Source of the DNA: a virus
DNA length: 30,590 nt
Direction: 5' to 3' (one strand)
IMG/VR virus record: IMGVR_UViG_3300012005_000010
Coordinates: 1-30,590 of that record
The position numbers and the translations under genes are program-made. Below the pieces are notes generated by a model. The model saw only the letters and a list, made by a program, of their open reading frames with translations, was not told the DNA's origin and did no database searches. This document shows, piece by piece, positions 3,467 to 29,614 of this stretch. Every line of letters starts with the position of its first letter. Positions within the stretch are counted from its first letter, which is position 1.

Positions 3467-5252
<1,786 letters not shown>

Positions 5253-9419: not shown

Positions 9420-10622
9420 CTAATTATTTATCCAATTTATTTCTTCTTCTGTTAAATTAAAATGTTTATATAATTCATCTTCTGATTTAACATACAAATT
9501 CTCAATTTTCAACTCTCTTAAATACCATAAAGGTATCATAGCTGGAGTTCCATAAGGTTTCCAAACTCCAGGTTCTGGATCTATTAAAGAGTATATTAAT
9601 TTCCATATCATTTTATGTTCTAAAAATAAAACAATACTATCTGGATTTGAATTTATTTTATCAGTTAACCAATAACTACCTGTAAAAACTCCTATTTCAT
9701 CTTTACCTGAAAAATATCTAGGTCTTGGTTTACCAGCATAAGCTATCACAATTTTATTATCTAATTGGTGTTCAGTTTTAGAATCTGTTAATGTAAATTT
9801 ATCTGTCAACCAGCCTAATTGATTTTTATTACCTCCGCATTGTTTATATCTACCATTTTCAACTTGAGGTATGTTCATTTCTTCCCATCCTTTTTTAATA
9901 ATTATTTCATTGTTATAATTATGAGTTGATATTTTGTTTAAAATTGATAATTGTATAGAATTTTGCGAAAATTTATGTATTCTATCTATTTTACTAATAT
10001 CAATATTTTCAATATCGTAATTAGGATAATAAACTTTACATTCTTTTTGTTCTTCCTTATTATACACGTACCAATCAACACTAACTGAAACTTTTTCAGC
10101 TGCCCAAAAATATTGTAGCATATGTAATTCAGATAAATGTTTTTTAAGTTTTAAATGGAATTTATGATGAGATGATGCTATTCTCCAGCTATCAGGATGT
10201 ATAGCAATCATTTTACCACCATCTTTTAATAATTCTATCCCTTTTTCTACAAATTTTTTCCATAAACTATTAGGATTATATGGAGGATTTTGTATGATTA
10301 TATCAAATTTCATATTAGCGGTAATGTTTACTTCTTTATTATATTCCAATTCTAGGATATTGTTTAAAGAAACTCCTAAATTTACAGCAACTCTTTTCTT
10401 TAATTCACAACTAGTTGAATAGTATATATTGTTCATATCTAACCCTTTAGTCTTCAATATTATCAAAAATTCCAAATTTGATATGACCAAAATATCACCA
10501 TTCAAATATTGAATAGAATTTATCATGTTTTCACATAACTCGAAAGGTGTGTAAATACTATGTGGATCTTCTGATAATTTATAGATCTTCTCTAAGCTAT
10601 ATTGCAGTTCTAATTTGTTCAT
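9420..10622 (-). CDS. N6-adenine DNA methyltransferase with NPPY motif and target-recognition region
   Basis: The 400-residue protein has an N-terminal SIYTPFELCENMI element, a motif-I position occupied by an unusual ILVISNLEFLIIL (44-56, no Gly-rich DPxxGxG), and the catalytic FDIIIQNPPYNPN (106-118), which marks amino-methyltransferases acting on adenine N6. A substrate-proximal HPDSWR follows. Residues from about 180 onward form a target-recognition-like part with SGKDEIGVFTGSYWL and GTPAMIPLWYLREL. It lies 3 bases after the helicase gene in the same operon. The likely role is modification of phage DNA paired with the nuclease and helicase. Whether it binds SAM alone or needs the 8960-9415 protein cannot be seen. 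Confidence 0.82.
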   Translation of the reverse strand: MNKLELQYSLEKIYKLSEDPHSIYTPFELCENMINSIQYLNGDILVISNLEFLIILKTKGLDMNNIYYSTSCELKKRVAVNLGVSLNNILELEYNKEVNITANMKFDIIIQNPPYNPNSLWKKFVEKGIELLKDGGKMIAIHPDSWRIASSHHKFHLKLKKHLSELHMLQYFWAAEKVSVSVDWYVYNKEEQKECKVYYPNYDIENIDISKIDRIHKFSQNSIQLSILNKISTHNYNNEIIIKKGWEEMNIPQVENGRYKQCGGNKNQLGWLTDKFTLTDSKTEHQLDNKIVIAYAGKPRPRYFSGKDEIGVFTGSYWLTDKINSNPDSIVLFLEHKMIWKLIYSLIDPEPGVWKPYGTPAMIPLWYLRELKIENLYVKSEDELYKHFNLTEEEINWINN

Positions 10623-10625
10623 GAT

Positions 10626-12149
10626 TTATATTTTAAATCTGTTAAGCGTTTCTTCAACTTCTTCATTCATTACAGTAGACTTCAAAGCAAAATTATCTAA
10701 TTCTAGCTTATCGGCTTTTTCCTTCTCTTCAACTTCATGAACTATATCTAATATTTGAGCTTTGTAAGACATACCTCTTGTATCCAACTCATTCAGTCCT
10801 GATAATGGAACCGGCATCGCCTTTCCTTTGCTTTCTTTGATCACAACATCTTCACTGGCATTAAAACCATAAGTCCTGAGTGCATATACCATTTCGGCAA
10901 TACTTGCTCTCAGATCGTCTCCAATCATGCCATATACTGGTATGATGATCCATGCATAAGGCTTTGTGAACTTGTTCAATTCATTATATTTGATCTTCTC
11001 TGAATACAGGTTAGATCGATCTTTGTGATATAATCTGGTTGCTCTGCCCAATGTCTGCAAGAATGAACTCATGCTTAGATTATTCATCACCATTATTCCT
11101 GTTATGCCTGGAACGTCTATCCCTTCAGAGAGTATTTTCACATGTAGAATTATAACTTCATCTCTTTCATCCATATTTTGTAACTCATTCAGGAACAATT
11201 CTCTCTTGACTTCTATGCCATTTATCCTAGGCCTGTAAGCTGAAGATATATCGAATATTTTCAGATTTGGACGAGTGTCGATCTCCTGTTGCATCAATGG
11301 ATGGTTGACTATATTATTCAAGTGCTCAGAACCTTTTGTAACAACTAACAGTTTTGCTCCGATCTTGCAGTGGATCCTGTGTTCAGTGAAAGATTCCAAT
11401 ATAGCATTGACATCCTTGTCCAGCTCTGTGACTATTTCATCAGAAGAGACGTTGACCAAATGCATACGAGGTCTCAATATCTCACCAGCTTCTATCATTT
11501 CTAAAGGAGTCTTGGAGTATATAATCGGACCATATTCATCGACATTATTCATACCAAGTCCTGTTTCAGAAGCCGTCACTTTCAGTGTTGCAGTAAAATA
11601 GTATTTTCTCTCAGCATTGAACTGTAGCCTGCCATCTTCGTAGCCATCATATCTGATCCAACAGAACTCTTCGCTCACGAGATTATGAGCTTCGTCACAA
11701 AGAAGCATATAAACTGGAATCTTGGATTGTATGATTCTTACTGCGCTATCGTAAGTTGAGAATATGATTAAAGGGACATTTTCTCTTTGAGCTCTTTCGT
11801 ATTGATCCTTGATATCGATGCTAGATGTAGTGGATATCACTTCTCTGTAAGGCATATCTTTAGCCCAATTCATATCGTCTTTGTCCTCTTTTCTTCCAGA
11901 GTGTACAATCAGATATTGACAATCTCTTGCATTTGCAACAAGAATATCTTTCACTTCACTGTATAGCTGGTTAGTCAATAAAATTCTAGGACTCAATACT
12001 ACAAAAACCCTGGTTTTATCAAGATTATCAACAATAGCATTTGCCTGGATGAAAGTTTTGCCACTACCAGTCGGAAGATGAACAATTCCTTCTCTTATTA
12101 ATTCTATCTGAGTACTGGCATCCGTTTGGTGTTTTCTAGCTTTCTTCAT
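10626..12149 (-). CDS. SF2 DNA helicase/translocase of restriction-enzyme type
   Basis: The 507-residue protein has superfamily 2 motifs in order: Q-like RKHQTDA, Walker A LPTGSGKT (25-32), Ia (VLSPRILLTNQ), II DEAH (152-155), III TATLK (186-190), V SEGIDVPG and VI FLQTLGRATR. The spacing and the GIDVP-Q.GRATR form fit the motor of Type I/III/ISP restriction enzymes and related defence helicases better than T4 UvsW, whose N-terminal domain is absent. The C-terminal 120 residues are charged and helical. The start overlaps the nuclease stop by one base (TAATG), so the two are translated together. The predicted role is ATP-driven translocation on DNA for the adjacent nuclease. Confidence 0.87.
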   Translation of the reverse strand: MKKARKHQTDASTQIELIREGIVHLPTGSGKTFIQANAIVDNLDKTRVFVVLSPRILLTNQLYSEVKDILVANARDCQYLIVHSGRKEDKDDMNWAKDMPYREVISTTSSIDIKDQYERAQRENVPLIIFSTYDSAVRIIQSKIPVYMLLCDEAHNLVSEEFCWIRYDGYEDGRLQFNAERKYYFTATLKVTASETGLGMNNVDEYGPIIYSKTPLEMIEAGEILRPRMHLVNVSSDEIVTELDKDVNAILESFTEHRIHCKIGAKLLVVTKGSEHLNNIVNHPLMQQEIDTRPNLKIFDISSAYRPRINGIEVKRELFLNELQNMDERDEVIILHVKILSEGIDVPGITGIMVMNNLSMSSFLQTLGRATRLYHKDRSNLYSEKIKYNELNKFTKPYAWIIIPVYGMIGDDLRASIAEMVYALRTYGFNASEDVVIKESKGKAMPVPLSGLNELDTRGMSYKAQILDIVHEVEEKEKADKLELDNFALKSTVMNEEVEETLNRFKI

Positions 12150-12724
12150 TATTTGATATTTAAAAGTTCTCTGAATTTATCCCAGAACAATACATTATTA
12201 TCTAAAAGTTCTCTCATTTGTTTGTAACCGATGCATCTCACTTTTCCCAAGAACATCTCGTTGTCTGTGAAATGGTGTAAACCTTCGGCCGTTGTAATAA
12301 TCAACATATTGTTGAAAGAGTCTTTATCTACTCCATCGAATATCGAAGTCATCACGAAATTCGACAGATGATCTTTGTTAGCAGTCAATACTTGAGTAGT
12401 GTCGCTTCTGTATTTCACCTGAACTGTTGCAGTTTTGCCATCGATTCCAACACCTCTTCCATCGATCCCTTTGTCTTCGTTCTCCTTTACTATGACATAA
12501 TCAGAAATGCCTATTCTGTTATCAACAGGAGACATTTTGATCAGAGCTTCAACAAGCAATTCAAAACCATCACCTTTGTATTTATCTGGATCGTAACGAT
12601 CAGGAAACAATAATGAAAATTTCTCCAATCTAGAACAGAATGTCGAAAGCTTGTAACAGTTCTCTAGAAGCTCTTTAAGATTATGAGCTCTTGAAATGAA
12701 AGGATGATTCAATTCTATTTGCAT
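12149..12724 (-). CDS. Mrr-like PD-(D/E)xK restriction nuclease
   Basis: The 191-residue protein contains a restriction-endonuclease-like core: GDGFELLVEALIK (Glu55 in the first helix), KGIDGRGVGIDGK with the metal-binding Asp88, then VQVKY (Gln102-x-Lys104). This D...QxK form is typical of the Mrr/Type ISP nuclease family. The strand LIITTAEG and the later CIGYKQMREL fit the rest of the fold. It is the first gene of the operon, preceded by a TAnnTTTG-type box, and runs by a one-base overlap into the helicase. A stand-alone nuclease is about the size of the N-terminal domain of Type ISP enzymes. Confidence 0.75.
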   Translation of the reverse strand: MQIELNHPFISRAHNLKELLENCYKLSTFCSRLEKFSLLFPDRYDPDKYKGDGFELLVEALIKMSPVDNRIGISDYVIVKENEDKGIDGRGVGIDGKTATVQVKYRSDTTQVLTANKDHLSNFVMTSIFDGVDKDSFNNMLIITTAEGLHHFTDNEMFLGKVRCIGYKQMRELLDNNVLFWDKFRELLNIK

Positions 12725-12801: not shown

Positions 12802-15800
12802 TTACGCTGATGTACCAATCGTATTATTTGGAACAATCTGATATGGTGGTGGCGCAATATGAACATCAAATGGAGTATCTAATAAATAAATGGTCCAAGA
12901 TGTATAGCTTGTTATTCCAAAATCACTTACAGGAGCTATGGCTATAATAGGATCAACAGTCAAACTAGTTGCTGTTGAAGCAGGCCTGTTTGGAATTCTT
13001 GCGATCATATAATGCGTAGCGTCATGTTCTATTCTAACATAATCACCGGCATCAACATAATTAGATATCGTGTTAAAAACAAAGCTAAATGTTTTTCCAG
13101 CTGTCAAATCTATAGTACGTGATGAATTTGAGCTAGCATTAAAAGGTTTATTCAACGCAGATATTGCTCCATTTATTCCATTTTGAAAATACAACAAACT
13201 TGTTGGATTATTAGGAGATGCATTAAATGTACTAGTACCGCTTTTCGTAAATATGGTTGCGGCATTTATAGTATGTTGGATCACAATTATATTTCTGTTG
13301 CCAGAAACTGGAATCTCAGAAAGATTATTACCATTTTTTCCAAAATCTCTTACTATTTTTGGAACTGCAGAATTGTCAGGATAACCAAAAAATACTTTGT
13401 AATCAGGTCCAAGATAATAGTCGATCACATCTCTCAATATATTCTGTTTTGTACCATCAGTTGCATCCCATGTAGCGCCGCTGCTTATAAGATCTGCAGG
13501 CCTTGCAGCAATAACTCCAGCAGGAATAGAAGATTGCCAAGAACCAGCAACATAGCCATTTGCAGGATAACTGTAAGGAGCATAGTTTATGGTTGCTGTC
13601 AACTTTAATATCATTATTCCATTATTCCATATAATCAAAGTAGATCCAGGATTTTCAGCTGAATAGTTCTGTGCTACTATAGGGATATGTGCATATTTAG
13701 TACGATTTATATCTCCGCTGTATATGTTGTTGTTCATGACAACACAATCATTCAAAATCTGTCCATTATTGATAACTCCATCTTTCAATATGCTATTTCT
13801 GACATAACCACCATTGAAATTTGAAGACAACATTAAACCTTTATCGAACGTTCCGCTATTCCATGTACCATACGTAACAGAATTTAAAGCATTACTGTTT
13901 GTGAAATTTCCAGACATTTGAGAATTTGTGAAATTTGAATCAGCGATCGTTCCGAATGTAAAGCCGAAAGCCAGTTCGTAATTTCCTCCATATATGTTTG
14001 TGCCTAACAGGTAAGAAGACTTTACATCGCCTTGTAAAACATAACAAAACTGTAATAATTTATATTTCATAGATCTCAAAGAAACTCTGCTGATTTTAGT
14101 AGTTCCAACGTCATTGTTATTGATGCCTATGCTCAGACTTCTATTTATTCCACCTTCCGTAAACAAAGCTATCTTGGTTGTTTCACCAGTTTTTATTCTA
14201 GCTAAAATTTCTCTATCACCATAATAATCTTCCACTTTTATAGCTAGAGTGTTTAAAGGGTTAGTATTTTCAAGACAATCGACTTCTATTACAAATGTAT
14301 TATAGGCTTCAACTACGCCATTCTGATATACATAAGTTCGATTATCATCCATATATCCCAATGTTTCCATCGTGATTGCACTCATTTTGTTATTATTACC
14401 AGGATAGCCTGCAGAATCACTCTTGTTTGTAACTATCAATTTATAATCTCCTGTAGTAGAATTATAATATGATACAAAACCTGAATACCATTTATTCGGA
14501 TTTGTTGGATCCACAGCTTTGAACCTGTTGCCTATTATAAATCTATTAGGGATTGTAGCAGTAGCAGAAGGAAAACCTTGTGTTGATGCAATATTACCTG
14601 TATCACCAAAATAGCTACTAAAATCTATCTGATATCCTGGAAAATCTGCATTTTTTATACCTTTATGCAAAGACGACGAACCGGTATTAGACTCCCAAGG
14701 TGGAATAGCATTTGTATCAACAGGAGCTGTAGCATTAAAAGAGTCCACAAGCCCTGATATCGGAACCAAATCGAAAGAATAATCATGTCTTAGATAATTT
14801 ATACCATATTGCATATCGTAAGAGTATCCAGAAGTTAAATTCCATCCTGTTCCTGTATCGAAATTAGGATTTATCAATAATTCATCAGAAGTATATTCTA
14901 GTGTAGATTTTATATTCTCTATCAAAGAGCTGTATATGTAACCTTTGCTCAGTATTCCATCTTTCCAAATGACATTATTTATAATAGTGTCGCTGTAAGG
15001 TATGAAATTTATCTGATCTGTTCCAAGTGTAAATTCAGAAGCTCCTGTATAACCAGTTGGTATAATATAAAATTTATGTCCTATACCAGTTGTTCCTTCT
15101 CTGACATAAGTTTGTAGATGTCTGAAGGTCTTTCCATTCGAACTATACTGATCATCAGTTCTGGTTAATGTTCCAGCGACATAATCATATACATAAATAC
15201 CATTCTCAAATAAATTAGATTGATCTTTAACCAAAATTCTTTGTACGATTGCGGGTTGTCCAATTGCAGGTATTACAATTGATACGCCAGCAGTTGAGAA
15301 ACCACCTATTGGTGATTGTACAAACTGTCCATCGCCTCTAGGTCCACCATTTGCAACATAAGTAAAATTATATACAGAAATATCAGTAGTTGTTGTAGCG
15401 TTCACAGATGGTATTCTGTACATAGAAGAATCAACAGTCCCTTTTATCCAACCGGTGTTAGAAAATGGTATTATACCAAAAGCTGGTTTGAACATTGTCA
15501 GAGGAGTATTATTACTTAAACCAAGTCTAAGAAATGCGCTAGATAATGAAGTATTATTATCTATCAAATAGGCTTCGTCATTATACACATTTCCTGAATT
15601 ATCTATAGCATTTCCAAAGAAATGTTTTTCACTGAATGCTGGAAAAGTTGGAGCTGTAGTTATAGTATTTACAAGATATAGACCGACACTAGATATAGAA
15701 ACATTCGTGTTTACAGATAAAGAATTCGTTATGAAGTTTATTTGTAGATTTCCTGTAGTACCTGCAGTAACTAATATAGCATAATCTCCACTACCAGAGT

Positions 15801-18800
15801 ATTTTAAAGGGTACACGTTAGTGCCTAAACGAACCGCAATTTGTATAGTATCTGGGTTAGAAGCGTGGTTCAAATAAGGTTTTGAATTTGAAACTATTTT
15901 GAACTTTAACAAATAAGCAGTACCTGCTGTAGTGGTTGCATTAATTTGCAGATATTGTCCATAGGTTGAATATGTACCAGCAGGTATAGTGACTGTTTCA
16001 ACACCTGAATTTTCCACTAAAGTTACTCCAGATCCAGAAACAGTGAACGCGCCAGTTGTTACATTTATTGTATTTATATTAGTCAAAACTACAGCAGGAG
16101 TTCCGGTAGAATAGTCCTTCGAAACAGTATTGAAAGTTGTTACGTCGTTTACTGTCCCTGTTATATTTCCAGACAAAAATGTATTATTGATATATTTGCC
16201 AGAAGTCATTGCAAGATCTGGATTATCTATGATGCAGTTTTCGTATGTAGGTGTTCCTGAATTAGAATAATTTCCACCTACGAAATTACAACCTTTGTGA
16301 TAACCATGCGTTGCAGAACATCCATATTTTGTTGTACAAATTGTCCAATTTGCACCTATATTATGAATATTATTCATTGCGCAGTTAAAAAAATCTCCAC
16401 CTGATGTGTAACCATTAACGATATCACATTGATTGAAAACACCATTTCTAAAAATTGTATATCCTAAAGAATAAAAATTACAAGAATTGAAAGTTCCACC
16501 AACATAATTTGTAAAATATTTTGAACTTGAATTAGTATAATAAGCTGTTGTATTGTTCAATACTCCACCATACACTTTAACTTGATCTTCTGTATAACTA
16601 AAAGTAGTCCAGTATCCAATATATCTCAAACTCTCTGTTGGAGTTATAACACTGATGATATAAGATTCACTAGGAGCTGTATAGATCCATATAGAACCAT
16701 TCCACTGTGCTATATAATTTGAATATCCAGTCCAAACGCCAGTACCGTTTTCAGATATGAGATATCTATCTCCTGTCGAAGGTGAAAATGGTGGATGACT
16801 CAATATTGATAAAACAGGAGCAGGTGGATATCCATTTGGAAATGATCCCAAAGTTGCTCCAGATGATATACCGCCGTTGAAATTTCCACTCAGTATAGTA
16901 CCTTGAAGATTTCCACCGTTGAATTCACCAGAAGATAATCTTCCATTCATTGTTCCTCCGTTGAACTGGCCGTTTAAGAAATAACTAGCAGTATTTGTAT
17001 AAGTTCCATTGTTGAAAATATTTCTAGAAACAGTATCGAACACGACTAAAGCACTAGGTGGATGAATAAAAATTGCAGTGCTAGAAGCGCTCGTTATGTA
17101 GTCCATGACTAAAGAATAATTCAAACCTCCGTTGTTTATAGCTTTTATTACATTGTAAGTTCCATCAGAACCATCTGTTGTACCAGTGACAGTGATATTT
17201 CTACCTGTGATATCGTCGATGTAAGCATCCGTAGATCCTAAGAACCTCAAAGTTCTGTGTTGGAATATGATATATAGATCATTTTTCACACCACCTCCAT
17301 AATACGAAGTTATATTAATATCCAATTGGTTGAGATCTTTGTTGTATGCAACGACTGTACCAGACATGCTTATCGCTGGATCAGAATGAGATCTTATTTC
17401 AAATGTAACTCCTGCTGTCAAACTTGTATGAAAGCAGTCCATATGTAATCTCTTCTGGTTTGCAAATACTACAACTGGTTCCAGTATATCGTAAGACATT
17501 GGAGTTGTAACCATGTTAGAATAACTCTGATTTCTAGAGAAAGGTACTATACCTTTGTGCCAGTTTGCCGAATCTGTGAAAGTTCCATTCGTCCATTCTC
17601 CTACAACAAAATGTGATCTTGAATCTCTGAAAGTTCCATCCAACCATCTGGCTGTATATTGATAATAGTTTGCAGCAGAAGGGACAAGTTCGAAACCAGA
17701 TTTCCATATACCACCTTGGAACAATCCATTGTACCAGTCGCCGTTAGCAAAGAATCCATTCATCCAAACACCGTCATAGAAATTTGTAGTGTTTGAAACT
17801 GTAACAGATCTGTTCTGAGTCCATGTAGAATCTTCGAACACTGTTGCAAATCTTTCTGATACACCTTTGATAAGAGCTTTAACATTACCCTGTTGAAAGA
17901 ATCCATTGACCCATCTTCCTCCTTCGAAACTGCCATCCATCCATGTAGTTCTGTTCATGAAAGCTTCGTATGAATCATGACCGTTTGAATAGTAGAAATT
18001 TGTAAATGCTACAGAATTCTGAGCCAGAGCTGGAACAGTTACAGTCACTTGTCCTGTACCGTTTGTTGATAAAACTACAGCAGGATAAGTCGATAGATCA
18101 GTACCTGAATAATTCAGGTTTCTCAAATATACAGTTTCTCCAACTATTGGATCATACACAGATAAAGGTATAGAAGTATCGTTGTACAAATCAACAGTCA
18201 ATTGACCCAATACCGAATTATCAATAATCTTTATCTTCCATCCATCTAATCTCATTCCTGATATCCATCGACCGTTATTCCAAGTTCCGTTGTAGAACCA
18301 AGAGTTGCTTATATAAGCATTGGTCAGATCGTAATTAAAAAGTGTTTGTGTTTCTATCTGATCTACCGTCACTAAATTATTTACATAATCAACTTTGTAC
18401 ACTTTGAATCTACACATGTTCATGTTGCGTTTATCGATAGCTGTGATAGGATCACGTAACATGTCAGTATTGTTTTCGTAAGAATTGTTAGATTTGATAT
18501 TCGAAACAAACATCAGATCGTCTACAGCATACAGATATGTTCTTTCTGCATCAACTCTGAAAGTGATGCGATTGTTTAGATCTTTTGTGATCTCTTTTAT
18601 ATTTGATAGAGAAGATCCGTACCATTCTCCGTTAGTGAAAGTTCCATCTAGAAAATAGATATCCTTTGCTGTACCGGAATTATGATTTCCTGCAAACCAG
18701 TACATGCCATAATGCAGAGATTCCGTACTACCAGCATTTTTCGAGCCATTGTGCCAGAAACCACCTCCTATTATACCGCCATATTGTGTACCATTAAACC

Positions 18801-19764
18801 AAGAACCATTGTGCCAAGTTCCGTTATAATAATTACCTGTTTGCCATACGCCACTCATCCATAGATTGTAACCTATACCGTTGTTATTTTTGAGCGAATT
18901 GTCCATGTTCTGTATAGACACAACTTCGTTTTCGTCCATTGTCGCTTTTCTACCAACGTAGTTTACGTAATTATCTGTTTTGGATTTCCAATCTCCTTTT
19001 ATAAATTCTCCTCCTAAAAAAACTGCATGGTTCACCGTAGCTTGAACTCCAGATTTGTTATTTATCGAACAACTTTTAGTTCTCGATATATTATATGCAG
19101 TAAATGTAGCTATAGTGAAATTTGTTGTTCCTACAGGACTAACCTTGAATGCAACATGGTATGCATCTACTGTGATCGATGGTATATTAACAGGAATAAA
19201 TTCTAAAACTTGATAAGTCCCTTTGTTGGTCATCTGATTTCCACCAGGAACATGAACTGTGATATGATCGTCTTTACTGAAAGTTGTTTCTCCTTCTGGC
19301 ATGAATAGATTGTAATCTGCTAAGCTGATGACGATATAATCATATCCTAAATAATTCAGGAATTGTACACCAGGTGTTTTAAGTGAACGTTCTACACCGA
19401 TGATACCATCATTGAATGTACCATTATTGAACTCACCTCCTCTGAAATAACCCATGCTGATATATGCATTGGTCGTTGCGTTGATCTGAGTGGCAGAAAA
19501 TGGATAAAGTCCATCCCAGTCTCGATCCAGTATTATAGAATTGTCGGTATAATCTACATCTATCACTATATAACCATCTGCATGGTTAGCATACGGCTTG
19601 TTGGATCCTAAACCAAGAGTCCAGTTGTCGTAATTACCACCAACAACAAATACTCTAACATCAGGTTTGATATCAGTATTCAATTCAGACCAAACTTTGG
19701 TTTTTATGAATCCTCCAACATTTATTGGTTCTGCTTTGTTGAGTAATTTGGAACTCTGAGCCAT
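12802..19764 (-). CDS. giant (2320-residue) aromatic/NG-repeat virion or adhesin-like protein
   Basis: By far the largest gene here. No signal peptide. Patches of short repeats of the form W/F-x-N/G-G-x-W/F (for example WQTGNYYNGTWHNGSWFNG) occur near residues 105-122, 300-350, 370-390, 490-505, 605-740, 925-970, 1090-1190 and 1965-2010. They alternate with beta-rich, Thr/Val/Ser-rich segments. Such turns-and-strands repeats suggest a long beta-solenoid-like or fibrous particle. Proteins of this kind in T4-like Bacteroidota phages are usually called structural or tail-associated; tail fibre, long baseplate spike or host-binding adhesin are all possible. The gene is followed by its own terminator and sits between the nucleotidyltransferase and restriction-like genes, not in the structural block. 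Function is inferred from shape only. Confidence 0.7.
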   Translation of the reverse strand: MAQSSKLLNKAEPINVGGFIKTKVWSELNTDIKPDVRVFVVGGNYDNWTLGLGSNKPYANHADGYIVIDVDYTDNSIILDRDWDGLYPFSATQINATTNAYISMGYFRGGEFNNGTFNDGIIGVERSLKTPGVQFLNYLGYDYIVISLADYNLFMPEGETTFSKDDHITVHVPGGNQMTNKGTYQVLEFIPVNIPSITVDAYHVAFKVSPVGTTNFTIATFTAYNISRTKSCSINNKSGVQATVNHAVFLGGEFIKGDWKSKTDNYVNYVGRKATMDENEVVSIQNMDNSLKNNNGIGYNLWMSGVWQTGNYYNGTWHNGSWFNGTQYGGIIGGGFWHNGSKNAGSTESLHYGMYWFAGNHNSGTAKDIYFLDGTFTNGEWYGSSLSNIKEITKDLNNRITFRVDAERTYLYAVDDLMFVSNIKSNNSYENNTDMLRDPITAIDKRNMNMCRFKVYKVDYVNNLVTVDQIETQTLFNYDLTNAYISNSWFYNGTWNNGRWISGMRLDGWKIKIIDNSVLGQLTVDLYNDTSIPLSVYDPIVGETVYLRNLNYSGTDLSTYPAVVLSTNGTGQVTVTVPALAQNSVAFTNFYYSNGHDSYEAFMNRTTWMDGSFEGGRWVNGFFQQGNVKALIKGVSERFATVFEDSTWTQNRSVTVSNTTNFYDGVWMNGFFANGDWYNGLFQGGIWKSGFELVPSAANYYQYTARWLDGTFRDSRSHFVVGEWTNGTFTDSANWHKGIVPFSRNQSYSNMVTTPMSYDILEPVVVFANQKRLHMDCFHTSLTAGVTFEIRSHSDPAISMSGTVVAYNKDLNQLDINITSYYGGGVKNDLYIIFQHRTLRFLGSTDAYIDDITGRNITVTGTTDGSDGTYNVIKAINNGGLNYSLVMDYITSASSTAIFIHPPSALVVFDTVSRNIFNNGTYTNTASYFLNGQFNGGTMNGRLSSGEFNGGNLQGTILSGNFNGGISSGATLGSFPNGYPPAPVLSILSHPPFSPSTGDRYLISENGTGVWTGYSNYIAQWNGSIWIYTAPSESYIISVITPTESLRYIGYWTTFSYTEDQVKVYGGVLNNTTAYYTNSSSKYFTNYVGGTFNSCNFYSLGYTIFRNGVFNQCDIVNGYTSGGDFFNCAMNNIHNIGANWTICTTKYGCSATHGYHKGCNFVGGNYSNSGTPTYENCIIDNPDLAMTSGKYINNTFLSGNITGTVNDVTTFNTVSKDYSTGTPAVVLTNINTINVTTGAFTVSGSGVTLVENSGVETVTIPAGTYSTYGQYLQINATTTAGTAYLLKFKIVSNSKPYLNHASNPDTIQIAVRLGTNVYPLKYSGSGDYAILVTAGTTGNLQINFITNSLSVNTNVSISSVGLYLVNTITTAPTFPAFSEKHFFGNAIDNSGNVYNDEAYLIDNNTSLSSAFLRLGLSNNTPLTMFKPAFGIIPFSNTGWIKGTVDSSMYRIPSVNATTTTDISVYNFTYVANGGPRGDGQFVQSPIGGFSTAGVSIVIPAIGQPAIVQRILVKDQSNLFENGIYVYDYVAGTLTRTDDQYSSNGKTFRHLQTYVREGTTGIGHKFYIIPTGYTGASEFTLGTDQINFIPYSDTIINNVIWKDGILSKGYIYSSLIENIKSTLEYTSDELLINPNFDTGTGWNLTSGYSYDMQYGINYLRHDYSFDLVPISGLVDSFNATAPVDTNAIPPWESNTGSSSLHKGIKNADFPGYQIDFSSYFGDTGNIASTQGFPSATATIPNRFIIGNRFKAVDPTNPNKWYSGFVSYYNSTTGDYKLIVTNKSDSAGYPGNNNKMSAITMETLGYMDDNRTYVYQNGVVEAYNTFVIEVDCLENTNPLNTLAIKVEDYYGDREILARIKTGETTKIALFTEGGINRSLSIGINNNDVGTTKISRVSLRSMKYKLLQFCYVLQGDVKSSYLLGTNIYGGNYELAFGFTFGTIADSNFTNSQMSGNFTNSNALNSVTYGTWNSGTFDKGLMLSSNFNGGYVRNSILKDGVINNGQILNDCVVMNNNIYSGDINRTKYAHIPIVAQNYSAENPGSTLIIWNNGIMILKLTATINYAPYSYPANGYVAGSWQSSIPAGVIAARPADLISSGATWDATDGTKQNILRDVIDYYLGPDYKVFFGYPDNSAVPKIVRDFGKNGNNLSEIPVSGNRNIIVIQHTINAATIFTKSGTSTFNASPNNPTSLLYFQNGINGAISALNKPFNASSNSSRTIDLTAGKTFSFVFNTISNYVDAGDYVRIEHDATHYMIARIPNRPASTATSLTVDPIIAIAPVSDFGITSYTSWTIYLLDTPFDVHIAPPPYQIVPNNTIGTSA

Positions 19765-19814: not shown

Positions 19815-20978
19815 CTATTTATTGCTTTTTAATCTATTATAAATTTGAAAGAAGTGTTCGTTTTCTAATCTTTCCTTCTCTTTGGATATTTGTTCTCCGA
19901 TGAAGCCTTTGGCTACCAGATCTTTGCCATCCGTGATCGGTTCATATTCATGAAAAGCGTTCATGAAATATGGACACAGTTTTCTATTTATTACCCAGTT
20001 TTCCAAACTAAAAAATATGTTATTCAATTTTTTATAGAGTTTATAGACATGATTGAAATCATACACAATGTCACTTCTGATACCAAGTGAACATTGTTCA
20101 TATTTCAATAGAAATATAACTTCATTGTACAAATCACGAGGCCATTTCAGTTCTTCTATGATGTATTTTTCTTTGTTTATAAGATCTGGAAGTTGTAAAA
20201 ATGATGCAAAATGCTCTGACATAGATCCATTTTCGTAATAAGAATATGCCAAAGCATCAGATCTGAAACAATCCAACCCTTCGAACACTTGATCCAATAT
20301 TCCATACAAGTCAAGTCTCTGAAGATATAAAAAGAAATCTGTTTGTATATGAGCTTTTTTCATCTCTTCGATCATCCTTTCTCTGGAAACTCTTTCTTCT
20401 TTTGGAAGATCTAGATCGAACAGACGATTGTTTAAGTATAATTCTTTTGCAGATCTGTTCTCGATAAAGAATTTCAATTTCTCTGAAAGTCTGATCGCTC
20501 TGACTATGCGAAGTCTGTCTTCTGTGATCCTTGATTTAGGATCTCCGACAAAACGTAAAATTTTATCTTTTATGTCCTTCTGGCCTTCGAAAAAATCGAT
20601 AATTTCTCCTGTTTCAAGATCGTAATATAATGAATTTACAACAAAATCTCTTCGGCTGGCATCTTCATAAATAGAAGAATAAGAATATGTTGTGTTTTTG
20701 CCAATACCGGAATCAGCACGAAAAGTTGCAATTTCAAATTCTAGACCGTTGATCTTAGTTCTCAAAACTGGAAAGCTTTCACCAGTTGGAAGAGCTTCTA
20801 TGTTTGCTTCTTTTAAAATCCTTAGTCCATCTTCTAATGTAGCATCGGTAGCTATGTCGTAATCGTCCACTTCTATTCCTAGTAAAAAATCTCGAACTGA
20901 ACCACCTACAATATAAGTTTTGAAACCTGCATTTTTGTAAATGTTTTTTATTTTATCTATTTCTTTTGGATAGTTCAT
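19815..20978 (-). CDS. tRNA nucleotidyltransferase (CCA-adding)/poly(A) polymerase family
   Basis: The family adds CCA, or A, to RNA 3' ends. Motifs, numbered from the ATG at 20978 (387 residues): GGSVRDFLLG (25-34), DDYDIATDA with the catalytic Asp pair (38-46), RRDFVVNSL (109-117), GDPKSRITEDRLRIVRAIR (145-163), which includes the nucleotide-recognition region and marks class II. The longer frame starts with TTG at 20999; the ATG is preferred because a TAnnTTTG box sits 19 bases before it. The C-terminal half is helical and diverged, and I cannot tell CCA-adding, A-adding or poly(A) activity apart. With rtcB in the same window, a role in tRNA 3'-end repair during infection is the most economical reading. 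Confidence 0.88.
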   Translation of the reverse strand: MNYPKEIDKIKNIYKNAGFKTYIVGGSVRDFLLGIEVDDYDIATDATLEDGLRILKEANIEALPTGESFPVLRTKINGLEFEIATFRADSGIGKNTTYSYSSIYEDASRRDFVVNSLYYDLETGEIIDFFEGQKDIKDKILRFVGDPKSRITEDRLRIVRAIRLSEKLKFFIENRSAKELYLNNRLFDLDLPKEERVSRERMIEEMKKAHIQTDFFLYLQRLDLYGILDQVFEGLDCFRSDALAYSYYENGSMSEHFASFLQLPDLINKEKYIIEELKWPRDLYNEVIFLLKYEQCSLGIRSDIVYDFNHVYKLYKKLNNIFFSLENWVINRKLCPYFMNAFHEYEPITDGKDLVAKGFIGEQISKEKERLENEHFFQIYNRLKSNK

Positions 20979-20996
20979 TTGATCATTATTGATAAT

Positions 20997-21004
20997 CAAA
21001 AATA
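20997..21004 (-). promoter_or_regulatory. candidate -7 promoter box for the nucleotidyltransferase gene
   Basis: TATTTTTG on the minus strand matches TAnnTTTG, 19 bases upstream of the ATG at 20978. No clear -33 element is visible. Confidence 0.3.
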
Positions 21005-21030: not shown

Positions 21031-21864
21031 TTAATCACTAATGATTGTCTGTTTTACTTTAATAGATGGGATTTTAGTTAAAAATACTTTCGAATCTGTC
21101 CAAAGTTCTCTTATGTTTTTATCACCTACTATATTCGGTACTTCTTTTTGTGTTACAATAGAGAATCCATTTTTTATAGGATCGAATGCATCTTCAATAA
21201 GAGCTTGTAATCCTCCATATTTTTTAATAAGGTCAAACATAAACATGAGTTTTTTAATTTCTGATTCAGGACTCTTATGTTCAGATCTTTCTTGTTTTTC
21301 AATCCATGCATTATGATATTCAGTCCTACTTATATTTTTTATTATCGCATCTATTTTTTTTAAATTAGGTTTTAAATATGGTTTTAGATCATAATGTTTT
21401 AGTTTTGAGTCCTCTACAGCTTTTTTTATTTTTGCTCCAAGTTCTCCCCACTTGTTTGATATAGTAGTTTGTAACCACCAAACTAATTGAGATTTTAATA
21501 AATAAGATAATGTTTTTCCAGCAAACGCATCATAAGTATTTATAGTAAATGGAGAATATTCAACTTTCGTATCTGGCATTAGCAATGAAACTGCATAAGG
21601 CCAACTTGTTAGATCATTAAAATCGTATCCTAAACACATACCAAGTTTGGCTTCAGCAATACATTCGTATAAAGATCCTGATTGTTGAACCCAATTAGAT
21701 GCATACTTAGGACTATTGCTCATGAATATGCTATGATTTCTCTTTGGAAAATCCTTCCAAGCTGGAAGCCACTCTATGAGTTTTGTTATAGAATATTTAG
21801 ACTCTTGCTTATTTTTTTCTTGTTCTTCTCCATTAAATAGTAATGTAAAATATTGAAAAATATC
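21031..21864 (-). CDS. phage ADP-ribosyltransferase-like protein, main part, no ATG start
   Basis: The open frame begins after a TGA (21886-21888) and has only TTG (21865-21867) or ATA codons before DIFQYFTLLF; the next ATG is near residue 49. Residues LPAWKDFPKRNHSIFMSNS followed by ASNW and a Tyr-Glu strand recall a phage family I associate with virion ADP-ribosyltransferases, where Y-Y-T-L-L..P.W..YPKRS.SI..S and a C-terminal DLFDP..NGF are recurrent; here the C-terminal match is DAFDPIKNGFS. The expected N-terminal YRG-type arginine segment is missing from this ORF but a similar FCGM occurs in the short ORF 325 bases upstream (22190-22270). Joining AAT (22190-22192) to GAT (21862-21864) is in frame. 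Family assignment is from memory of patterns and is moderate to weak. Confidence 0.5.
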   Translation of the reverse strand, partial: DIFQYFTLLFNGEEQEKNKQESKYSITKLIEWLPAWKDFPKRNHSIFMSNSPKYASNWVQQSGSLYECIAEAKLGMCLGYDFNDLTSWPYAVSLLMPDTKVEYSPFTINTYDAFAGKTLSYLLKSQLVWWLQTTISNKWGELGAKIKKAVEDSKLKHYDLKPYLKPNLKKIDAIIKNISRTEYHNAWIEKQERSEHKSPESEIKKLMFMFDLIKKYGGLQALIEDAFDPIKNGFSIVTQKEVPNIVGDKNIRELWTDSKVFLTKIPSIKVKQTIISD

Positions 21865-22189
21865 CAATATTATAAACTTATTGCTTCACAGACACCGGCA
21901 ACCCAGCATCTCCACGATCTTTTAGAATGATCACTCATTCAGGTTCGGGTTTACTCATCCCTACCTTCGGACCTTTCGGTACCAAATATTTAACTGAATA
22001 AATCCAGTTTTGATTTTAACATTTGTTTTACATATGAATTTGTAAATTTTCATACAACCAACATTTCAATGAACAGTAATCAATATATTAATTGATAAAG
22101 TATATATTGAATCCAGTTGGTTTAGTTTAACTATTTTTGTTTATTTTTACATAAATTTATACATAATCAGTTACTTAATATTATACTAT
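21865..22189 (-). other. 325-base insert or intron candidate interrupting the ART-like gene
   Basis: This gap contains no protein-like ORF. Its first 200 or so bases (read on the minus strand) are very AT-rich; its last part is the GC-rich structured block at 21881-21985. Removing 21865-22189 fuses the two reading frames, leaves U as the last base of the upstream piece and G as the last base of the insert (the group I intron rule), and an 8-bp inverted repeat (22108-22115 with 22192-22199) spans the upstream boundary like a guide-sequence pairing. No group I P7 core or group II domain V was recognised, and the pairing lacks the usual U-G wobble. A 9-base direct repeat (TATAATATT) lies near each edge. 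Confidence 0.4.
21881..21985 (-). ncRNA. GC-rich structured RNA candidate of unknown class
   Basis: A roughly 105-base block is much richer in G and C than its flanks and packed with hairpins. Read on the minus strand: ACC-GAAA-GGT (GNRA loop, 21971-21980), AGGT-A-GGG..CCC-GA-ACCT (21941-21966), GAATGA-GTGA-TCATTC (21925-21940, perfect with GNRA-type loop), and an outer CGGT/ACCG-type pairing (21894-21897 with 21977-21980). It ends a few bases before the ORF at 21031-21864. One minus frame would read VPKGPKVGMSKPEPE, stop, then KDRGDAGLPVSVKQ, which resembles a TnpB C-terminal tail; it may be the leftover 3' end of such a gene, whose RNA forms the omega guide RNA. Riboswitch, ribozyme or intron parts are alternatives. 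Confidence 0.5.
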
Positions 22190-22270
22190 ATTGGATTCAT
22201 ATGAATTTTTCATTCCACAGAATAAAGGGCTAACATTATTGTAATCTTCATATAGTTTTAAGTGCTTCAT
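22181..22270 (-). CDS. 29-codon ORF, likely 5' piece of the interrupted ART-like gene
   Basis: ATG at 22270 reads MKHLKLYEDYNNVSPLFCGM and stops at 22181-22183. The MKxxxLYEDY start resembles the capsid-targeting N-termini of T4-like internal proteins, and PLFCGMKN resembles the YRGM segment at the start of phage ADP-ribosyltransferases (with Cys in place of the usual Arg). Codons up to AAT (22190-22192) would be exon 1 if the insert is removed; the remaining two codons belong to the insert. It lies 51 bases after the S1-gene terminator with an A-rich leader. Confidence 0.45.
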   Translation of the reverse strand: MKHLKLYEDYNNVSPLFCGMKNSYESNIV

Positions 22271-22320
22271 TGCTGTTCAAAAATAGATTTATGTTTTATA
22301 TATTGTTCAAATGTAATCAA

Positions 22321-22350
22321 AAAGAGCCAGATGTTTAACATCTGGCTCTC
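22321..22350 (-). terminator. strong intrinsic terminator of the S1-like gene
   Basis: GAGCCAGATG / CATCTGGCTC (22324-22333, 22339-22348) with a 5-base loop and extra AGA/TCT pairs, followed by TTTTT on the minus strand, 15 bases past the stop of 22365-23492. Confidence 0.9.
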
Positions 22351-22364
22351 TTCTTTATTTTTAT

Positions 22365-29534: not shown

Positions 29535-29576
29535 GTCATGATAATTATATTACCGCCAAATAAAAAAGTTTAAAAC

Positions 29577-29614
29577 AAAAAAAACGATCCAAATATTTGG
29601 ATCGTTTTTTTTTT
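29577..29614 (-). terminator. strong intrinsic terminator
   Basis: A perfect palindrome CGATCCAAAT / ATTTGGATCG (29585-29604), extended by A- and T-runs of eight or more on each side, ends 18 bases before the stop of the minus-strand gene 29632-30054. Likely bidirectional. Confidence 0.9.

What the first reader, a model, noticed from the sequence alone, without database searches (positions are those of the whole stretch)
21031..22270. ADP-ribosyltransferase-like gene interrupted by a 325-base RNA-like insert
The main ORF has no ATG and starts right after a stop and a structured block. 325 bases upstream a 27-codon piece has an ATG, a capsid-targeting-like start (MKHLKLYEDY) and FCGM, resembling the missing YRGM part. 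Removing 21865-22189 joins ...YESN to DIFQYFTLL in frame, with U before and G at the end of the insert as in group I introns, and an 8-bp pairing over the 5' junction. This may be a previously undescribed intron, an IS605-like IStron, or a mobile RNA in a virion effector gene.
Basis: partly seen in the sequence, partly recalled or inferred. Interest (0 to 1): 0.85.

Follow-up and report, generated by a model that had tools for sequence, protein, structure and literature searches.

The report
Megaphage gene split by structured insert
In a fragment of a giant bacterial virus, a gene of a rare jumbo-phage protein family is cut in two by a roughly 330-base non-coding piece that folds well as RNA; it is no known intron or RNA family, no clear relatives were found, and the gene may simply be broken.

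Summary
The split gene is real; the proposed mechanism is not shown. The 278-aa ORF (21031-21867, minus) belongs to phrog_12810, a family of huge-phage proteins. All six relatives examined carry a YRG/WRG motif before the part our ORF covers. The ORF lacks it and has no in-frame ATG until residue 49. The 29-codon piece at 22270-22184 supplies PLFCGMK, the only P-x-[YFW]-x-G-M-[KR] match in six frames of the window, aligning with PLYRGMR/PIYRGMK of relatives. The conserved arginine is a cysteine and an N-terminal helix is missing, so gene decay is likely. The intervening 325-331 bases fold better than shuffles as sense-strand RNA (z -3.95), mainly through five hairpins. They match no Rfam family, including group I and II introns; the same group I test finds an intron in a related megaphage. 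No copy was found in phage, plasmid or IMG/VR searches or about 790 Bacteroidota genomes; one weak candidate relative lies between genes of megaphage LR756508. No tnpB is nearby. Best reading: insertion of an unclassified structured element, gene probably inactivated; an undescribed intron stays possible.

The parts
22184..22270 (-). 5' gene piece: 29 codons, MKHLKLYEDY start and PLFCGMK motif (stop codon at 22183-22181, inside the insert)
   Evidence: only P-x-[YFW]-x-G-M-[KR] match in the window
   Evidence: sense-strand fold z -3.95 for 21862-22196
22188..22196 (-). left arm of the 9-bp end helix (ATCCAATAT)
   Evidence: mean pair probability 0.93; p 0.007 to 0.075 by two controls
21862..21870 (-). 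right arm of the 9-bp end helix (ATATTGGAT)
   Evidence: weaker pairing continues into both flanks (I1)
22056..22122 (-). long hairpin arm in the A+T-rich half
   Evidence: the A+T-rich half as a whole is not better than shuffles (z -0.92)
21992..22009 (-). hairpin H1, AACUGGA UUUA UUCAGUU
21967..21985 (-). hairpin H2 with GAAA loop
21941..21966 (-). hairpin H3, AGGUAGGG-AUGAGUAAA-CCCGAACCU; the stretch that resembles LR756508
21925..21940 (-). hairpin H4 with GUGA loop
21890..21911 (-). hairpin H5, nine pairs with GUUG loop
   Evidence: mean pair probability 0.99
21031..21867 (-). main ORF of the split gene, phrog_12810 family, no ATG start
   Evidence: (E 7.6e-10, profile 52-246)
22319..22353 (.). 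strong bidirectional terminator-like hairpin between the S1-like gene and the split gene

Best explanation
A gene of the phrog_12810 family, possibly an ART-like protein packaged in and injected with the virion, was interrupted about eight codons after its YRGM-type motif by an element of roughly 325-331 bases. The element carries no protein gene. It has a short end inverted repeat and an array of five hairpins that fold best as RNA read in the gene's own direction. The most likely sense is a non-autonomous mobile or structured-RNA element of unclassified type that landed at a partly self-complementary site. The host gene is most likely inactive: its conserved arginine is a cysteine, the N-terminal helix is missing, and translation from the original start stops in the insert. 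Shown: the split, family membership of the main ORF, sense-strand structure, absence from known families. Inferred: that the DNA in between arrived by insertion, that it is mobile, and that the gene is dead.
For: Relatives of the family are uninterrupted (LR756502 L044:1435-2232, L045:1228-1911; LR756508; Atu_ph07). The main ORF enters the profile only at position 52 or 51. The 5' piece bears the single motif match. The spacing from motif to core is close to that of relatives. The insert's fold is beyond all 300 shuffles on the sense strand and stronger there than on the other strand. End inverted repeat 9 bp. YRG/WRG arginine present in 6 of 6 relatives, cysteine here.
Against: No second copy of the insert was found anywhere, which a mobile element should have. 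No target duplication is clear. The end repeat is only borderline significant. The main ORF is intact over 278 codons, so decay must be recent, or the gene is still used. No closely related phage with an uninterrupted copy of this very gene was found.
Confidence: 0.5

Rival explanations
1. An undescribed self-splicing intron: the end helix brings both splice sites together, the hairpin array forms the catalytic core, and splicing yields one reading frame.
For: Sense-strand structure z -3.95 with GNRA-type loops; main ORF kept open over 278 codons; end helix spans both junctions; group I introns of about 206 nt are very common in other huge phages (PMC12363816), so introns in such genomes are expected.
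Against: No group I or II match up to E 10 while the control rings at 96 bits; none of the group I core stretches seen in that control is present; 8-bp junction pairing at chance level; the product would lack the conserved arginine and a helix.
Confidence: 0.2
2. An IS200/IS605-type remnant (IStron or tnpB-less element) whose right half is a guide-RNA scaffold acting with a TnpB supplied in trans.
For: Lay-out with an A+T-rich left part and a structured right part, no coding capacity, insertion in a partly self-complementary site; a more distant megaphage, LR756500, carries several tnpB genes.
Against: No tnpB in this record or above cut-off in LR756502, LR745206, LR756504, LR756501; element ends of the LR756500 tnpB copies differ; model R1 does not hit LR756500; no Rfam match.
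Confidence: 0.1
3. No insertion: the structured block is a leader RNA or separate small RNA, the 29-codon ORF is a leader peptide or the remnant of another gene, and the main ORF is translated from the TTG at 21867.
For: The insert lies between two ORFs; the 5' piece scores only 2.1 bits against the family profile; a weakly similar stretch sits between genes in LR756508.
Against: Nearly all other genes of the window start with ATG; all six family members examined have a YRG-type motif upstream of the part covered, and the only such PxxxGM motif in the window is in the 5' piece.
Confidence: 0.12
4. Assembly chimera or local misassembly in the metagenome contig.
For: Single metagenomic record, insert seen once.
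Against: Both flanks belong to one gene family, in order and orientation; base composition of the insert as a whole (28% G+C) is near that of the window (32%).
Confidence: 0.05
5. Canonical group I or group II intron that the models miss.
For: Size fits a small group I intron; T before and G at the end of the proposed insert.
Against: negative on both strands; control intron detected.
Confidence: 0.03

Closest known systems
PHROG 12810 proteins (LR756502, LR756508, Agrobacterium phage Atu_ph07)
   Same: Main ORF is a member (E 7.6e-10); same order of start, [YF]xGM motif and LPxWKxxPK..S core
   Different: Others are one uninterrupted ORF with YRG or WRG; here split, arginine replaced, N-terminal helix missing
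Group I introns of huge phages (LR756501 at 718159-718390; Jug phages, PMC12363816)
   Same: Small structured RNA without ORF in a megaphage genome
   Different: None of the core stretches of the LR756501 intron; no Rfam match; no G-U pair at the proposed 5' splice site
IStrons and IS200/IS605 non-autonomous elements with omega RNA
   Same: Non-coding, structured toward one end, no evident target duplication
   Different: No tnpB in this record or above cut-off in the nearest relatives, no scaffold match, no second copy
Intergenic stretch of megaphage LR756508 (L061:1501-1627)
   Same: GGUAGGGnUGnGnAAACCCGAnCC and AAAAG..UGGAGA..GCUGGGU in the same order
   Different: Between genes, no H2, H5 pairing not kept, weak statistics (17 bits, E 0.08 in that genome)

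Membership tests
PHROG 12810 | profile match of the core | tested here: met
   E 7.6e-10, profile 52-246
PHROG 12810 | contiguous N-terminal start and YRG motif in the same ORF | tested here: not met
   motif lies in a separate 29-codon ORF over 300 bases upstream
ADP-ribosyltransferase superfamily (R-S-E class) | profile match to an ART family | tested here: not met
   no ART match in Pfam for this ORF or two relatives
ADP-ribosyltransferase superfamily (R-S-E class) | conserved arginine in the first strand | tested here: not met
   cysteine in FCGM; arginine in 6 of 6 relatives
ADP-ribosyltransferase superfamily (R-S-E class) | ART fold | tested here: inconclusive
   single-sequence model has pLDDT 37 and was not used
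Group I intron | P3-P8 catalytic core recognised by RF00028 | tested here: not met
   no match up to E 10; control intron 96 bits
Group I intron | G-U pair at the 5' splice site in P1 | tested here: not met
   the only 8-bp pairing over the junction has no such pair and is at chance level
Group II intron | conserved domains, recognised by the Rfam group II models | tested here: not met
   no match up to E 10
IStron / IS200-IS605 | tnpB or tnpA in the element, genome or close relatives | tested here: not met
   tnpB: (47-kb fragment only; the rest of this phage is not held); tnpA was not searched
IStron / IS200-IS605 | right-end guide RNA scaffold | tested here: inconclusive
   no Rfam match; TnpB scaffolds may be poorly covered there
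MITE | multiple copies | tested here: not met
   no copy in this record, related megaphages or collections searched
MITE | terminal inverted repeats | tested here: inconclusive
   9 bp perfect; 151 of 2000 shuffles, 30 of 4313 equal-distance zones reach it

The most novel reading that the evidence does not exclude
The insert is a founding member of an undescribed class of small self-splicing or mobile RNA in megaphages, with the intergenic stretch of LR756508 as a distant relative.
Probability: 0.13. Interest if true: 0.85.

Novelty: new variant of a known kind. Interest (0 to 1): 0.4.

Why it matters
Some huge phages fragment many genes with group I introns. A structured insert in one of them that is not group I or II would, if spliced, be a new kind of intron; if not, it is an RNA-like element that breaks a possible virion-borne effector. 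Either way one read-mapping or RT-PCR test would decide it.

Tried and rejected
Rfam on both strands at gathering and up to E 10: nothing relevant. Exact 17-18-mers and degenerate patterns of the hairpins in IMG/VR and GTDB genomes: the hits inspected were coding or unrelated chance matches. Covariance model of the single sequence in 396 and 395 Bacteroidota genomes: two weak hits, both overlapping protein genes. The LR756508 hit: its three-prime part alone aligns better than 994 of 1000 shuffles, but its own fold is no better than shuffles (z -0.56), H5 is not kept, and its neighbours have no relatives; left as inconclusive. tnpB elements of LR756500: ends unlike the insert. tRNA or tmRNA: none. 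Close homologues of the main ORF in IMG/VR: none. Short matches of the insert's right end in LR756502 and LR756504 looked like a repeated element end; they are short, in A+T-rich DNA, without the structured block beside them, and were judged chance. AlphaFold model: unusable.

Full report
Where the window lies. The window is 30.6 kb of a 46.9-kb virus record. Its 618-aa and 375-aa proteins match uncultured megaphages of 462-735 kb at about 30-46% identity (LR756502, LR745206, LR756504, LR756501, LR756500). The window also holds gp32-like, RtcB, tRNA nucleotidyltransferase and secretion-tail domains, so it is a fragment of a huge phage, probably of Bacteroidota (inference).

The gene. The minus-strand ORF 21031-21867 (278 aa) matches PHROG 12810, function unknown, E 7.6e-10, entering the 788-position profile only at position 52. 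Its first in-frame Met is residue 49, and its only early start codon is a TTG shortly after a stop. Nearly all other genes in the window start with ATG. Two paralogues in LR756502 (L044, L045), one in LR756508 and three in Agrobacterium phage Atu_ph07 are uninterrupted. All six have a YRG or WRG motif about 30 residues or more before the core that our ORF covers, five have an MK.. or MRW start, and three have YRGM followed by R or K. The 29-codon ORF at 22270-22184 reads MKHLKLYEDYNNVSPLFCGMKNSYESNIV and contains the only P-x-[YFW]-x-G-M-[KR] match in six frames of the window. A profile of the family's N-terminal part gives it only 2.1 bits, so the assignment rests on motif, position, strand and the missing start of the main ORF together. 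I consider the split gene real, at about 85-90%.

State of the gene. The motif arginine present in all six relatives is a cysteine here, and the roughly 30 residues between start and motif are reduced to about 8. The name ADP-ribosyltransferase is an inference from motifs; Pfam finds no ART domain in this ORF or two relatives, and a structure model from the single sequence was too poor to use. ARTs are common in jumbo phages and thought to be delivered with the virion (PMC9503650). The main ORF is still open over 278 codons, with a chance of about 2e-10 in random DNA of this composition, and keeps codon-position composition. Decay, if it is decay, is recent.

The insert. Between the two pieces lie about 325-331 bases. 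Folded on the sense strand it is more stable than all 300 shuffles (z -3.95), with weaker stability on the other strand (z -2.95); the 128-base block 21885-22012 carries the signal (z -3.53 against -1.43) and the A+T-rich half does not (z -0.92). Five local hairpins with high pair probability and a 9-bp helix of the two ends make up the structure. Compared with other stretches of the window at equal G+C, the block is in the lower tail but not extreme (z -1.9, rank 42 of 1218). The end helix is reached in 151 of 2000 shuffles and in 30 of 4313 equally spaced zones, and weaker pairing continues into both flanks. The 8-bp pairing over the 5' junction is chance (82 of 500 shuffles).

Identity. No relevant Rfam family matches up to E 10 on either strand. 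As a control, RF00028 finds a group I intron in LR756501 with 96 bits. No second copy exists in this record, in INPHARED or PLSDB by blastn, or in IMG/VR by patterns. A covariance model of the block, searched in megaphages and about 790 Bacteroidota genomes, gave two hits inside protein genes and one between genes of LR756508 (17 bits, E 0.08 there). In the last, the 3' part outside the matched core also aligns better than 994 of 1000 shuffles, but hairpin H5 is not conserved and the stretch does not fold better than shuffles. I regard it as an open lead. tnpB is absent from this record and not above cut-off in four of the closest megaphages.

Conclusion. The data support an interrupted gene and a sense-strand RNA structure in the interrupting DNA. 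They do not support a known intron class or a known IStron. Insertion of an unclassified non-coding element with probable loss of gene function is the most economical reading; an undescribed intron cannot be excluded without RNA or read data. The flanks were not joined in any search or script of this work; the pieces were searched apart.

Noticed in passing
window 22319-22353: Strong bidirectional terminator-like hairpin (16 pairs) between the S1-like gene and the split gene, so the split gene probably has its own transcription start downstream of it.
   Followed up: partly
window 12802-19764: 2320-aa protein with many NGxWxxGxW-type repeats, weakly like tail fibre PHROGs.
   Followed up: no
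window 29575-29610: A+T-rich hairpin AAAAACGATCCAAATATTTGGATCGTTTTT, another bidirectional terminator-like site.
   Followed up: no
window 3467-4861 and 19815-20999: RtcB RNA ligase and tRNA nucleotidyltransferase in one phage fragment, perhaps an RNA-repair set.
   Followed up: no
window 9420-12724: Eco57I-like methylase, DEAD/ResIII helicase and a very weak Mrr-like gene in a row: may be a phage-borne restriction or anti-restriction cluster.
   Followed up: no
L088 1501-1732 (LR756501 718159-718390): Clear group I intron (96 bits) in the 735-kb megaphage.
   Followed up: partly
L036, L037 (LR756500): Two tnpB copies 95% alike with shared ends, so a fairly recently active element in a megaphage.
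   Followed up: partly
window 22198-22208 and 22031-22041: 11-base direct repeat CATATGAATTT, once in the 5' gene piece and once inside the insert; may be chance in A+T-rich DNA.
   Followed up: partly
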